A DNA stretch of 45,383 nucleotides from positions 1-45,383 of the forward strand of contig JAGBVI010000002.1 in NCBI GenBank assembly GCA_017630395.1, in the 5' to 3' direction. Position numbers and translations under genes: made by a program. The DNA is from Paludibacteraceae bacterium. Lineage in GTDB: Bacteria > Bacteroidota > Bacteroidia > Bacteroidales > Paludibacteraceae. Shown piece after piece: positions 3,261 through 35,905 of the stretch. The notes below the pieces were generated by a model. The model saw only the letters and a list, made by a program, of their open reading frames with translations, was not told the DNA's origin and searched no databases. Numbering within the stretch: the first letter of the stretch is position 1; every line of letters begins with the position of its first letter.

Positions 3261-3268
3261 TCTCTTTG
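3261..3268 (+). promoter_or_regulatory. Possible -7 box of the ilv operon
   Basis: TCTCTTTG differs from the Bacteroidota -7 consensus TAnnTTTG at one of the fixed positions. It lies 45 bp upstream of the leader ORF, a sensible distance for a leader transcript. No clear -33 TTG is seen, so this is a weak call based mainly on position. Confidence 0.35.
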
Positions 3269-3312
3269 GAAAGGAGATAATCAAAAAACTTAACGAATTA
3301 ATAACATTTAAA

Positions 3313-3369
3313 ATGAAAAACTTTATCTCAAATATCCTTCTCGTAATTTTGGTGGTCGTGACAGACTAA
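3313..3369 (+). CDS. ilvL: ilv operon leader peptide
   Basis: An 18-codon ORF encoding MKNFISNILLVILVVVTD. Eleven of its 18 residues are Ile, Leu or Val, with an unbroken run ILLVILVVV (residues 8-16). These are the end products of the operon that follows, as in proteobacterial ilv leader peptides. It ends 38 bases before a strong terminator hairpin (3408-3438) and 89 bases before ilvD. The product itself presumably has no function; what matters is ribosome stalling at its Ile/Leu/Val codons. The start ATG follows an A-rich stretch, the usual weak ribosome-binding context of this phylum. Confidence 0.8.
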   Translation: MKNFISNILLVILVVVTD

Positions 3370-3377
3370 CAAAGAGC

Positions 3378-3441
3378 GAGAAAGTTTTGTATTGAAAGGA
3401 CAATGTAAACTCTTTCTCCGAAAAAAGGGGGAAGGGTTTTT
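3378..3441 (+). terminator. ilv attenuator: terminator with competing antiterminator strand
   Basis: The terminator stem is AACTCTTTCTCC (3408-3419) paired with GGGGGAAGGGTT (3427-3438): 12 continuous pairs including three G-U, a 7-nt loop and a U-rich tail. Upstream, GAGAAAG (3378-3384) is perfectly complementary to CTTTCTC inside the 5' arm and can therefore form an antiterminator. That strand starts 9 nt after the leader stop codon. A ribosome at the stop would mask it and allow termination, while a ribosome stalled on the Ile/Leu/Val codons would leave it free. This is the classical attenuation geometry. Confidence 0.78.
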
Positions 3442-3458
3442 ATTTTAAAGGATATAAT

Positions 3459-5288
3459 ATGAAAAATGAATTAAGAAGTGCATTCAGCACACAAGGCAGA
3501 CGCATGGCGGGGGCTCGTGCATTGTGGAGAGCAAATGGGATGAAAGAAGAACAAATTGGCAAACCAATCATTGCCATAGTTAATTCATTCACTCAATTTG
3601 TACCCGGACATGTTCACTTACATAAAATAGGGCAATTAGTAAAAAAAGAAATTGAGGCACTTGGGTGTTTTGCAGCAGAGTTTAACACGATTGCTATCGA
3701 TGATGGTATTGCAATGGGACATGATGGAATGTTGTACTCGCTACCATCCAGAGATTTAATTGCTGATAGTGTAGAATACATGGTGAATGCACATAAAGCG
3801 GATGCAATGGTGTGTATAAGCAACTGTGACAAAATTACTCCGGGTATGTTAATGGCGACAATGCGCTTAAACATTCCTACTATCTTCGTATCCGGAGGAC
3901 CGATGGAAGCCGGCGAAAAAGGAGACGAGCATCTTGACTTGATTGATGCCATGATTCAAGCTGCAGACAGCAACGTTAGCGATAAAGAGGTAGAAATTAT
4001 AGAACGCTGTGCTTGTCCAACTTGTGGTTCTTGTTCTGGTATGTTTACAGCCAACTCTATGAACTGTCTAAATGAAGCCATCGGCTTGGCTCTTGCTGGG
4101 AACGGAACTATTGTTGCGACTCACAAAAACAGAGAAAACCTGTTTAAAAAAGCGGCTAAACTAATTGTAGAGAACACTTATAAATACTATAGAGACGGAG
4201 ATGAGAGTGTGCTTCCTCTATCCATTGCAACAAGAGCAGCATTCCTCAATGCCATGACATTAGATATTGCCATGGGAGGGTCAACCAATACCGTACTTCA
4301 TCTTTTAGCCATAGCAAATGAGGCAGGCGTAAATTTCACAATGGATGATATTGACTCCCTTTCAAGAAAAACACCTTGTTTATGTAAGGTTGCTCCAAAT
4401 ACAAAAAAATATCATATTCAAGATGTAAACAGAGCCGGTGGAATTATTTCCATCCTGTCCGAATTAAGTAAAGGGGGACTCCTTGATACTAGTGTCAAAC
4501 GCGTGGATGGATTTTCACTTAAGGAAGCTATCGAGCATTACGACATAACCAAAGAGAACTGTAGTGAAGAGGCTAAGAAAATATACTTAAGCGCACCAGC
4601 AAGAACAAGGAGTATCGAATTAGGCGGACAAGAAATGTATTATAAAACATTGGATACAGACCGCTCTGCAGGATGTATTCGAGCAATTGAATACGCCTAT
4701 ACGAAAGATGGAGGTTTGGGAGTTTTGAAAGGAAACATTGCTCAAGATGGATGCGTTATCAAAACTGCCGGAGTAGATGAAAGTATATGGAAATTTAGCG
4801 GTCCGGCCAAAGTGTATCATTCTCAAGACGATGCATGCGAGGGCATATTAGGCGGAGAAGTTGTATCCGGAGATGTGGTGGTAATCATACACGAAGGACC
4901 GAAAGGAGGTCCGGGAATGCAAGAGATGCTCTACCCTACCTCTTATATCAAATCAAAACACTTAGGTAAAGAGTGTGCTTTGATTACAGATGGACGATTT
5001 TCCGGAGGAACATCCGGACTCTCTATCGGTCACATTTCTCCGGAAGCAGCATCAGGAGGTAATATAGGCTTAATTAGAAATGGAGATATCATCGAAATTG
5101 ATATTCCCAACCGAAGCATCAATGTAAAATTGTCTGACCAAGAGTTAGCCAATAGGAGGAAAGAAGAAGAGTGTAAAGGAATTAATGCTTGGAAACCCAA
5201 CAGAAATCGACAAGTATCTAAATCATTGCGAGCATACGCCTGCATGGTTTCATCAGCAGATAAAGGAGGAATACGTATAATTGAATAA
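3459..5288 (+). CDS. ilvD: Dihydroxy-acid dehydratase
   Basis: A cytosolic Fe-S enzyme that dehydrates 2,3-dihydroxy-isovalerate and 2,3-dihydroxy-3-methylvalerate to the 2-keto acids in valine, isoleucine and leucine synthesis. At 609 residues it matches the E. coli IlvD type closely from end to end. The cluster cysteines appear in SNCDK (C123) and [11 protein letters not shown] (C186, C189, C192). Other family signatures are [44 protein letters not shown] and [12 protein letters not shown]. The start is preceded by AAAGGA at good spacing. First gene of the ilv operon, just behind the attenuator; its end lies 7 bases before the chosen ilvB ATG. Confidence 0.96.
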
Positions 5289-5295
5289 AAGCGGT

Positions 5296-6996
5296 ATGGC
5301 AGAAAAAAAAATGAAAGGTTCTTATATTTTGATGGAAGCTCTAAAACAAGAAGGAGTAGATACTATATTTGGTTATCCCGGAGGAAATATCATTCCTGTT
5401 TTTGATGCCTTATATGACTATCAAGATGATTTCAACTATATACTAATGCGTCATGAACAAGCTGTCACTCACGCAGCAGAGGGATATGCAAGAGCTTCAG
5501 GGAAACCGGGAGTATGCATTGTAACATCCGGACCCGGAGCTACCAATACAATTACAGGCATTGGCGATGCCATGATGGATAGTACCCCTATGATTGTGAT
5601 AACAGGTCAAGCCAACGCAGCAAGCTTAGGTACAGATGCATTTCAAGAGATTGACCTTGTAGGTATAACTCAACCCATCACAAAATGGTCATACCAAATT
5701 AGACGTGCCGAAGATATTGCCTACGCAGTTGCTCGCGCATTTCATATTGCAACTACAGGAAGACCTGGACCGGTTGTATTAGATTTCGCAAAAAATGCCC
5801 AAAATGAATTATTTGAATTTCAACCGCAAAAAATATCAATTGCCAGAGGATATATACCTTATCCGGATCTTAATGAAAAACAAGTTGATGAGGTTGCGAA
5901 CCTAATAAATGAATCTAAAAAGCCGCTAGTTTTGGTTGGACAAGGAGTCATTTTAAGCAATGCAGAAAAAGAGTTACTGACTTTCTTGGAAAAAGCAGAT
6001 ATTCCTGCCGCTTCAACACTATTGGGATTATCTGCCATGCCATCCGACTTCCGACTTAACAAAGGATTTATCGGGATGCACGGAAATATCGCACCAAATA
6101 AAAAGACAAACGAATGTGATCTTTTAATTGGCATAGGTATGAGATTTGCCGATCGGGTAACTGGGAACGTTAAGACCTATGCCAAACAAGCAAAGATTGT
6201 CCATATAGACATAGATATATCCGAAATAGGAAAAAACATAAAAACAGATGCTAAAATTTTAGGAGATGCAAAAGAGGTATTGATTGCACTTACTAAAAAG
6301 ATTAAAGAAAACAATCATAGCGAGTGGATCGACTCTTTTAAAGCATTTGAAGAGGAAGAATACAATAAAGTTATAAAAAAATCTTTATATCCGTCCGTCG
6401 ATGCCCTTACAATGGGAGAAGTTGTTCGAAAAGTATCCGATGCAACTCATAAAGATGCAATATTGGTTACAGATGTTGGACAAAATCAAATGGAATCAGC
6501 AAGATATTTTCAATACACAAAAAGTCGAAGTATCGTCACTTCAGGAGGATTAGGAACAATGGGATTTGGACTACCTGCAGCCATTGGAGCTAAAATTGGT
6601 GTTCCGAATAGGACTGTTTGTATATTTGCCGGAGATGGAGGTTTCCAAATGAGTATTCAAGAATTGGGAACCATTATGCAAAGCAATATTGGGGTCAAAA
6701 TGATACTATTAAACAATAACTATTTGGGAATGGTACGTCAATGGCAAGAACTATTTTACCAAAAACGTTACTCCTCTACTCCAATGATAAACCCAGATTT
6801 CAATGCTATCGCATCAGCCTACAAAATTGCAAATAGAAAAGTAACAAAGAGAGATGAACTTGACGAGGCAATAAATGATATGCTTAGCAATGATGAAGCA
6901 TTTTTATTAGTAGTTGAAGTAGAAGAGAATGGTTTGGTATATCCAATGACTCCAGCAGGAGAAACAATTACCAATATACTTACCCCGGAAGATTAG
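5296..6996 (+). CDS. ilvB: Acetolactate synthase, large (catalytic) subunit
   Basis: A thiamine-diphosphate enzyme that condenses two pyruvates, or pyruvate and 2-ketobutyrate, in the first common step of branched-chain amino acid synthesis. At 566 residues it shows the three TPP-enzyme domains. The catalytic glutamate is E54 in MRHEQAVTHAAEGYARA. The ThDP/Mg motif GDGGFQMSIQELGT...NNNYLGM lies near residue 440, and the C-terminal region carries MVRQWQELFY. The ATG at 5296 is preferred over an in-frame TTG at 5281, which overlaps ilvD. It is followed by ilvN after 3 bases, so catalytic and regulatory subunits are coupled. Confidence 0.95.
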   Translation: MAEKKMKGSYILMEALKQEGVDTIFGYPGGNIIPVFDALYDYQDDFNYILMRHEQAVTHAAEGYARASGKPGVCIVTSGPGATNTITGIGDAMMDSTPMIVITGQANAASLGTDAFQEIDLVGITQPITKWSYQIRRAEDIAYAVARAFHIATTGRPGPVVLDFAKNAQNELFEFQPQKISIARGYIPYPDLNEKQVDEVANLINESKKPLVLVGQGVILSNAEKELLTFLEKADIPAASTLLGLSAMPSDFRLNKGFIGMHGNIAPNKKTNECDLLIGIGMRFADRVTGNVKTYAKQAKIVHIDIDISEIGKNIKTDAKILGDAKEVLIALTKKIKENNHSEWIDSFKAFEEEEYNKVIKKSLYPSVDALTMGEVVRKVSDATHKDAILVTDVGQNQMESARYFQYTKSRSIVTSGGLGTMGFGLPAAIGAKIGVPNRTVCIFAGDGGFQMSIQELGTIMQSNIGVKMILLNNNYLGMVRQWQELFYQKRYSSTPMINPDFNAIASAYKIANRKVTKRDELDEAINDMLSNDEAFLLVVEVEENGLVYPMTPAGETITNILTPED

Positions 6997-6999
6997 ATT

Positions 7000-7560
7000 A
7001 TGGAAAAAAAATTATATACAATCATCATATTCTCCGAAAATCATGTCGGATTATTAAATCAAATCAGTATTATCTTCACAAGAAGAGGGTTAAATATTGA
7101 AACACTCTCCGTTTCCCCCTCTGCTTTAGAAGGGATACACAAGTTTACCATTACAACCTATACAGATGAAAATACCATCGAAAAGGTTGTAAAACAAATC
7201 GACAAAAGAGTTGACATCATCAAATCATTCTACAACACAGATGAAGAGTTGGTATATCAAGAAATTGCATTGTATAAAATATCAACCGACGACTTTATTG
7301 CGTTGGAATCTAGCGAAGAACTAATTAGAAAATACAATATCCGAATTCTTGAAATGACTAAAAATTGTGTTGTTTTAGAAAAAACAGGACATTATAATGA
7401 GACTCAAGGATTATTTGATGAATTAAGTCAAAAAATGAAAGTTTTACAATTTATTCGTTCCGGAAGAATTGCAATTACAAAATCAAAAATCGAACGTCTT
7501 TCTGACATATTAGAAAAATATGAAGAAAGATGGAAAAAAACAGTTAATCATGGAGAATAA
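7000..7560 (+). CDS. ilvN: Acetolactate synthase, small (regulatory) subunit
   Basis: Regulatory partner of IlvB that confers valine feedback inhibition. The N-terminal ACT domain is clear (YTIIIFSENHVGLLNQIS, then the I-F-T-R-R-G-L-N-I-E-T-L segment at residues 27-38), followed by a C-terminal ALS_ss domain with GHYNETQGLFDEL and FIRSGRIAITK. At 186 residues it is within the usual 160-190 range. It starts 3 bases after ilvB and overlaps the following thioesterase gene by 11 bases. Confidence 0.93.
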   Translation: MEKKLYTIIIFSENHVGLLNQISIIFTRRGLNIETLSVSPSALEGIHKFTITTYTDENTIEKVVKQIDKRVDIIKSFYNTDEELVYQEIALYKISTDDFIALESSEELIRKYNIRILEMTKNCVVLEKTGHYNETQGLFDELSQKMKVLQFIRSGRIAITKSKIERLSDILEKYEERWKKTVNHGE

Positions 7561-35547: not shown

Positions 35548-35552
35548 CATTA

Positions 35553-35718
35553 GAGATTTAGATAAGACATATCTACGAAAGTAGATTAAAGATATTCATT
35601 CTGGTTTTAGTTTGGTTAAAATTTTTTAGGACGAGGGAGTTCTAATCTCCCAAAAAAAGAAACGATGTGAATTGTTGGTCCGATAAAACGGAGGTTCATA
35701 ACCCGCCTCCGTTTTTTT
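35553..35718 (+). ncRNA. Putative non-coding RNA of about 165 nt
   Basis: Bounded by a perfect promoter (-7 box ending at 35547) and an intrinsic terminator: AACGGAGG (35687-35694) pairs with CCTCCGTT (35706-35713), followed by seven Ts. There is no ATG-initiated ORF of useful length inside. Two internal hairpins are evident: ATCTAC-GAAA-GTAGAT (35571-35586) with a GNRA tetraloop, and GGGAG-TTCTAAT-CTCCC (35635-35651). It could be 6S RNA, the Bacteroidales-1 RNA motif or something new; I cannot match it by eye. It is not an SRP RNA, tmRNA or RNase P RNA. Confidence 0.75.
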
Positions 35719-35905
35719 ATGTCTTTACGTCACTATAATCAACTCCATTTCTTAGTGAAAGTCGATATCTATTCGAACTACTGCAAAACTCCCCACCTCA
35801 GCAACGAATCAAAGAAATCAATAAAAAGCGACCTATAAAAAGTTTTTTTTACATGGAAATAAAAAAATAAGAGAGTTGTTTACCTTGGATTTAGAATAAA
35901 AATAG

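What the first reader, a model, noticed from the sequence alone, without database searches (positions are those of the whole stretch)
3261..3458. Complete ilv-operon attenuator with a leader peptide MKNFISNILLVILVVVTD
An 18-codon ORF with an unbroken I/L/V run precedes a 12-bp terminator stem and ilvD. GAGAAAG (3378-3384), 9 nt after the leader stop, is perfectly complementary to CTTTCTC in the terminator's 5' arm. The layout matches the his leader in the same window (short ORF, antiterminator strand a few nt after the stop, terminator, then first gene about 20-30 nt later). This suggests that leader-peptide attenuation is a general design for amino acid operons in this organism.
Basis: partly seen in the sequence, partly recalled or inferred. 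Interest (0 to 1): 0.75.

Follow-up and report, generated by a model that had tools for sequence, protein, structure and literature searches.

The report
Leader-peptide attenuator of the ilv operon
Ahead of the genes for making isoleucine, leucine and valine lies what looks like a classical ribosome-read switch that stops transcription when these amino acids are plentiful; it is conserved in many relatives and of an already known type.

Summary
Window 3313-3369 encodes MKNFISNILLVILVVVTD, followed by an intrinsic terminator (3407-3439) 19 nt before ilvD.

An Ile/Leu/Val leader of at least 8 in 10 codons precedes ilvD in 70 of 156 distinct upstreams, against 0.2 in shuffles. Both competing folds beat shuffles in most relatives tested.

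In the same genome leuA, pheA and hisG have the same layout. thrA and 13 further genes checked do not, so 'general design' holds for four operons. Leader composition follows operon products: leu leaders hold Ile and Leu but almost no Val (4 of 515 residues; ilv leaders 370 of 1715); pheA leaders hold Phe and Tyr. Leaders lack Shine-Dalgarno sites.

Classical attenuation is textbook, and a flavobacterium paper reports clues for it before amino acid operons (PMC9723704). New member of a known kind; no experiment was run.

The parts
3261..3268 (+). Possible promoter -7 element, TCTCTTTG, one mismatch to the Bacteroidetes consensus TAnnTTTG (weak)
   Evidence: Sequence by eye; consensus from PMC7366714; an exact match is present upstream of 74 of 80 ilv leaders but not here
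3313..3369 (+). Leader ORF MKNFISNILLVILVVVTD with stop
   Evidence: 0 of 5000 shuffles reach its I/L/V density
3334..3360 (+). Control codons 8-16, all Ile, Leu or Val
3338..3344 (+). Strand 1, pairs with 3376-3382 (protector hairpin)
   Evidence: Minimum-energy and centroid fold
3376..3394 (+). Strand 2: pairs with strand 1 (3376-3382) or with strand 3 (3378-3384 and 3386-3394)
3401..3418 (+). Strand 3, antiterminator partner of strand 2; its 3' part is the 5' arm of the terminator
3407..3439 (+). Intrinsic terminator hairpin (strands 3 and 4), U-rich tail follows
3459..5288 (+). ilvD, first gene of the controlled operon
5281..7560 (+). Acetolactate synthase large (5281-6996) and small (7000-7560) subunit genes, ilvB and ilvN
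   Evidence: NCBIfam TIGR00118 and TIGR00119 over cut-off

Best explanation
A ribosome-mediated transcription attenuator with four RNA strands. A ribosome follows RNA polymerase through the leader ORF. If charged Ile, Leu or Val tRNA is short, the ribosome stalls in the control codons and covers strand 1; strand 2 then pairs with strand 3, the terminator does not form in time, and ilvD-ilvB-ilvN is transcribed. If charged tRNAs are plentiful, the ribosome reaches the stop codon and partly covers strand 2, or leaves and lets strands 1 and 2 pair; strand 3 is then free to pair with strand 4 and transcription ends. Shown here: the sequence parts, the predicted folds with and without a masked ribosome, and their conservation. 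Inferred: that the leader is translated, the stall, termination, and the amino acid response.
For: Leader with 9 I/L/V in 10 codons, 0 of 5000 shuffles; such leaders (8 or more) in 70 of 156 distinct ilvD upstreams against 0.2 expected; terminators after 66 of 81 leaders against 8 of 405 shuffles; strand 2:3 pairing in the best 5% of shuffles in 50 of 66 and leader-plus-spacer folding in 40 of 66. With a masked ribosome at codon 12 or 16 the antiterminator forms (-12.0 kcal/mol) before the 3' arm is made; at the stop it falls to -4.2. The nearest relative's two leader changes are Leu to Ile and a synonymous Val. leuA, pheA and hisG of the same genome have the same layout with the fitting residues, and pheA and leuA leaders are conserved in relatives.
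Against: No expression data. With the whole terminator present, the masked folds still favour the terminator (-20.6), so antitermination must rest on the order of folding. Pairing of 2:3 in the best 5% was 36 of 66 when the loop was left out. 15 of 81 leaders have no terminator by my rule. L097 and L103 (same genus) and the eight upstreams of genus g20 (L110-L117) lack the leader. The window's own promoter match is imperfect. Relatives are not independent, so shuffle counts overstate the certainty.
Confidence: 0.93

Rival explanations
1. A tRNA-, metabolite- or protein-sensing attenuator (T-box, riboswitch or protein-bound leader) in which the short ORF is incidental.
For: L024 and L144 keep a terminator-like hairpin upstream of ilvD without an I/L/V leader, so other sensors may exist in relatives.
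Against: No Rfam family at gathering score in the window's leader; at E up to 1 only a chance match to MALAT1. The ORF's I/L/V density is conserved with diverging sequence, which an incidental ORF would not show.
Confidence: 0.03
2. The leader peptide serves translation (ribosome reinitiation or an 'antenna' for ilvD) and the hairpin is a weak or partial terminator of another transcript.
For: Short leader genes near structural genes peak at set distances in Bacteroidetes, and reinitiation has been proposed (PMC4833913, passages).
Against: The leader stop lies 89 nt from ilvD, while that peak is at 11-14 bp; a U-tailed hairpin lies between; both alternative folds would be unexplained.
Confidence: 0.03
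3. Chance: an AT-rich stretch that happens to encode I/L/V codons before an ordinary terminator.
For: I/L/V codons are frequent in AT-rich DNA.
Against: 0 of 5000 shuffles for the window; 70 of 156 against 0.2 in relatives; other residue groups of three amino acids give 0 to 4 of 156 against 81 for ILV.
Confidence: 0.01

Closest known systems
Enterobacterial ilv, leu, his and phe leader-peptide attenuators (recalled textbook systems)
   Same: Short leader ORF rich in the operon's own amino acids, protector, antiterminator and terminator hairpins, then the first gene.
   Different: Other phylum; leaders without Shine-Dalgarno sites (2 of 80 have an SD-like 4-mer); no mutational or starvation data here.
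Leader-peptide attenuation clues in Flavobacterium psychrophilum (PMC9723704, section read)
   Same: Same class; structured leaders upstream of amino acid biosynthesis operons; elements before pheA and hisG conserved in the family.
   Different: Other order; the section read gives no ilv or leu case and no strand-level model.
Bacteroid-trp motif, Rfam RF01692 (table entry in PMC2864571)
   Same: A Bacteroidetes motif listed as probably cis-regulatory; its name suggests trp operons, and a trp-leader nature is recalled, not read.
   Different: No Rfam match in the window's leader.
Corynebacterium ilvBNC attenuator (PMC11857589 and PMC10272879, search listings with the start of the abstracts)
   Same: Branched-chain amino acid operon with an upstream ORF or leader peptide and alternative hairpins outside Proteobacteria.
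   Different: Actinobacteria; other first gene; tested by mutation there.

Membership tests
Ribosome-mediated transcription attenuator | Short leader ORF rich in codons for the operon's end product | tested here: met
   composition differs by operon as products do
Ribosome-mediated transcription attenuator | Intrinsic terminator between the leader ORF and the first gene | tested here: met
   66 of 81 ilv leaders in relatives
Ribosome-mediated transcription attenuator | Mutually exclusive antiterminator and protector structures | tested here: met
   Predicted in the window; better than shuffles in 50 of 66 (2:3) and 40 of 66 (leader plus spacer); in silico only
Ribosome-mediated transcription attenuator | Transcription starts upstream of the leader ORF | tested here: inconclusive
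   TAnnTTTG in 74 of 80 relatives' upstreams, only a near match in the window; no start site mapped
Ribosome-mediated transcription attenuator | The leader is translated and the ribosome stalls at control codons under starvation | not testable with these tools
   Needs ribosome profiling or mutants; the A-rich start context fits this phylum
Ribosome-mediated transcription attenuator | Termination relieved by lack of the cognate amino acid | not testable with these tools
   Needs expression or in vitro data
T-box or another Rfam leader family, Bacteroid-trp included | Match to the family's covariance model | tested here: not met
   gathering; E up to 1

The most novel reading that the evidence does not exclude
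Bacteroidales run a shared attenuation regulon (ilv, leu, phe, his) read by ribosomes that do not use Shine-Dalgarno sites. Each leader spells out the end products of its operon, so leaders can predict pathway wiring: leu leaders carry Ile and Leu but not Val because the operon also holds a citramalate-synthase-like gene, and pheA leaders carry both Phe and Tyr. Codon choice (GTC, CTA and ATT enriched over flanking genes) tunes sensitivity. This would imply close coupling of transcription and translation in this phylum.
Probability: 0.5. Interest if true: 0.6.

Novelty: new member of a known kind. Interest (0 to 1): 0.45.

Why it matters
It gives a concrete, testable case of classical attenuation in Bacteroidales, whose ribosomes are reported not to recognise Shine-Dalgarno sites (PMC9976891), and so a handle on whether transcription and translation are coupled there. 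Because leader composition follows the operon's products, such leaders can help assign pathways, for example isoleucine made through citramalate in the leu operon.

Tried and rejected
Rfam: no match beyond a tRNA in the window at gathering score; the MALAT1 match to the leader (E 0.088) is chance. Sigma-70 promoter scan: 13 found against 11.8 expected, uninformative. A paper search with five terms found nothing. The leu strand 2:3 test without the terminator loop was negative, 1 of 19; after looking at twelve leu leaders I repeated it with the loop for all three genes, so that version is after the fact. A trp operon could not be tested: the only chorismate-binding gene found sits in a men-like cluster. 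Class and phylum samples were scored for leaders only and without shuffles: 8 of 31 class and 3 of 20 further phylum upstreams reach 7 in 10; so I claim Bacteroidales, not the whole phylum. L184 (a pyrH-like hit) was left out because its start could not be set.

Considered and rejected: that the hairpin only ends an upstream transcript, which leaves the leader ORF and the alternative folds unexplained.

Full report
WHAT IS THERE. The leader ORF, the complementary heptamers and the terminator are at the stated coordinates. The 3300-3445 stretch folds far better than its shuffles (z -4.2, 0 of 200). When the RNA up to a ribosome stalled at codon 12 or 16 is masked and the terminator's 3' arm is not yet made, the predicted structure is an antiterminator of two helices, GAGAAAG:CTTTCTC (7 bp) and TTTGTATTG:CAATGTAAA (9 bp), -12.0 kcal/mol. 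With the ribosome at the stop codon this falls to -4.2. A stall at codon 5 leaves the protector hairpin in place (the mask reaches 14 nt past the codon, an E. coli-like footprint, recalled). Once the whole terminator is present the masked folds favour it, so antitermination would depend on the order of folding.

RELATIVES. IlvD relatives came from 80 named loci (the best 80 of 595 confirmed) and from family genomes, where 94 of 150 have a match. Upstreams of 84 of these besides the own genome were held. Dropped before counting: two with no N-terminal hit, one too short, six duplicates; 156 distinct upstreams remain, the window included. Near-identical upstreams may remain. A leader with at least 7 I/L/V in 10 codons is present in 81 (2.55 expected from shuffles), at least 8 in 70 (0.2 expected). 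The 81 leaders comprise 79 distinct peptides. Terminators follow in 66 of 81, against 8 of 405 shuffles. Strand 2:3 pairing, with the 5' arm plus loop, is in the best 5% of shuffles in 50 of 66, and the leader-plus-spacer fold in 40 of 66; a first version without the loop gave 36 of 66. In the nearest relative, L093, the leader differs at two bases, giving Leu to Ile and a synonymous Val. Exceptions: L097 and L103 of the same genus and all eight upstreams of genus g20 (L110-L117) lack such a leader, and L024 and L144 keep a terminator-like hairpin without it.

OTHER OPERONS OF THE SAME GENOME. leuA has MIQNNIIINIISLLIILRMQSR and a terminator; pheA has MRNFNYTFFFFFYFYFKSRSGIVLS and a terminator; hisG has MVQFFHHIHHYFQR and a shorter terminator. 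Masked folding gives an antiterminator for leu (-12.7 against -0.4 at the stop) and phe (-16.0 against 0.0). For his it is weaker: -7.4 against -1.1 with the 3' arm cut off, and a clear antiterminator only in one full-length fold. thrA has no such leader. Directly upstream of 13 further genes I saw no cognate-residue leader followed by a terminator: two cysK-like, one TrpB-like, one threonine-synthase-like, two aspartokinase-like, proB-like, argB-like, four tRNA synthetases and pheS. One of them, a leuS-like gene, has a leucine-rich ORF ending 2 nt before it, which leaves no room for a terminator. These gene names are my reading of the sequences, and only about 240-540 nt upstream were examined. 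trpE was not found.

PHE AND LEU IN RELATIVES. Matches were found in 68 of 101 (PheA) and 56 of 81 (LeuA) family genomes; the best 30 loci of each, own included, were used. F/Y leaders of at least 8 in 10 stand before pheA in 28 of 30 (shuffled mean 0.0), with terminators in 27 of 28 (2 of 140 shuffled) and strand 2:3 in the best 5% in 22 of 27 without and 20 of 27 with the loop. I/L/V leaders of at least 7 stand before leuA in 25 of 29 (1.7 shuffled; L331 was dropped for want of upstream sequence), with terminators in 19 of 25 (10 of 125 shuffled) and strand 2:3 in 1 of 19 without and 17 of 19 with the loop. The leader-plus-spacer fold is in the best 5% in 18 of 27 and 15 of 19. Leu leaders hold I 106, L 133, V 4 of 515 residues; ilv leaders I 246, L 269, V 370 of 1715 (Fisher p 1.5e-40, though residues of related leaders are not independent); phe leaders F 171, Y 120 of 532. 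The own leu operon also carries a gene whose best NCBIfam match is citramalate synthase CimA, 656 bits, under that model's cut-off of 950. By known biochemistry this would add isoleucine to the operon's products and would explain Ile codons without Val (inference).

EXPRESSION SIGNALS. TAnnTTTG, the Bacteroidetes -7 element (PMC7366714, passage), lies within 90 nt upstream of the leader start in 74 of 80 ilv leaders against 4.7 in mononucleotide shuffles, in 62 of the 74 at 17-36 nt; the window has only a near match by eye. It is also there for 27 of 28 phe and 25 of 25 leu leaders. Start contexts are A-rich at -3, -6 and -11 to -13, as reported for this phylum, and 2 of 80 have an SD-like 4-mer. 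Leader codons are skewed: GTC 0.45 of Val codons against 0.15 in flanking ORFs, CTA 0.21 of Leu against 0.05, ATT 0.71 of Ile against 0.39, in the 50 of 81 loci with enough sequence (similar against ilvD). This may be tuning of sensitivity or a demand of the RNA fold; I cannot tell which.

WHAT IS KNOWN. Classical attenuation is textbook knowledge. [quoted passage not shown] PMC9723704 (2021, one section read) reports strong clues upstream of amino acid operons in a flavobacterium and conserved elements before pheA and hisG. PMC7366714 (passages) notes short ORFs reminiscent of leader peptides in B. thetaiotaomicron. PMC2864571 lists a Bacteroid-trp motif (passages). PMC8632094 (passages) lists ilvD and ilvB motifs only in Veillonella and Leptospira. 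Surveys by Lyubetsky and colleagues of 2007 and 2010, cited in PMC4833913, could not be read here and may list Bacteroidetes cases. My nine searches showed no paper on the Bacteroidales ilv leader itself, within that library and the rows listed.

VERDICT. A real, conserved attenuator, ordinary in kind, in a group where the kind is thinly described in what I could search. The steps from sequence to function remain inferred.

Noticed in passing
L060, L062, L072 (Labilibaculum, Marinifilaceae, Marinifilum), upstream of ilvD: Two I/L/V-rich leader ORFs in tandem, each followed by its own terminator-like hairpin: a possible double attenuator.
   Followed up: partly
L024 and L144, upstream of ilvD: Terminator-like hairpin before ilvD without an I/L/V leader; a similar structured stretch in both, no Rfam match: perhaps another kind of sensor.
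   Followed up: partly
window 35550-35720: Possible small RNA between divergent genes, upstream of pheS: TATCTTTG-like promoter, ends in a strong hairpin with a T run; fold z -2.4 (5 of 200 shuffles as good), no Rfam match.
   Followed up: partly
own genome C87 (L179) and C68 (L091): A TrpB-like gene although no trpE was found; the only chorismate-binding gene found is in a men-like cluster.
   Followed up: no
own genome C96 (L088): The leu operon holds a second gene of the isopropylmalate/citramalate synthase family, best match CimA, and its leader is Ile-rich.
   Followed up: partly
own genome C46 (L189): Leucine-rich ORF ending 2 nt before a leuS-like gene.
   Followed up: no
ilv leaders of several family genera, for example L118, L124, L138: Shared C-terminal motif LLVxNQR, with the stop TGA often lying inside strand 2; 39 of 81 leaders end in TGAG or TGAA.
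   Followed up: no
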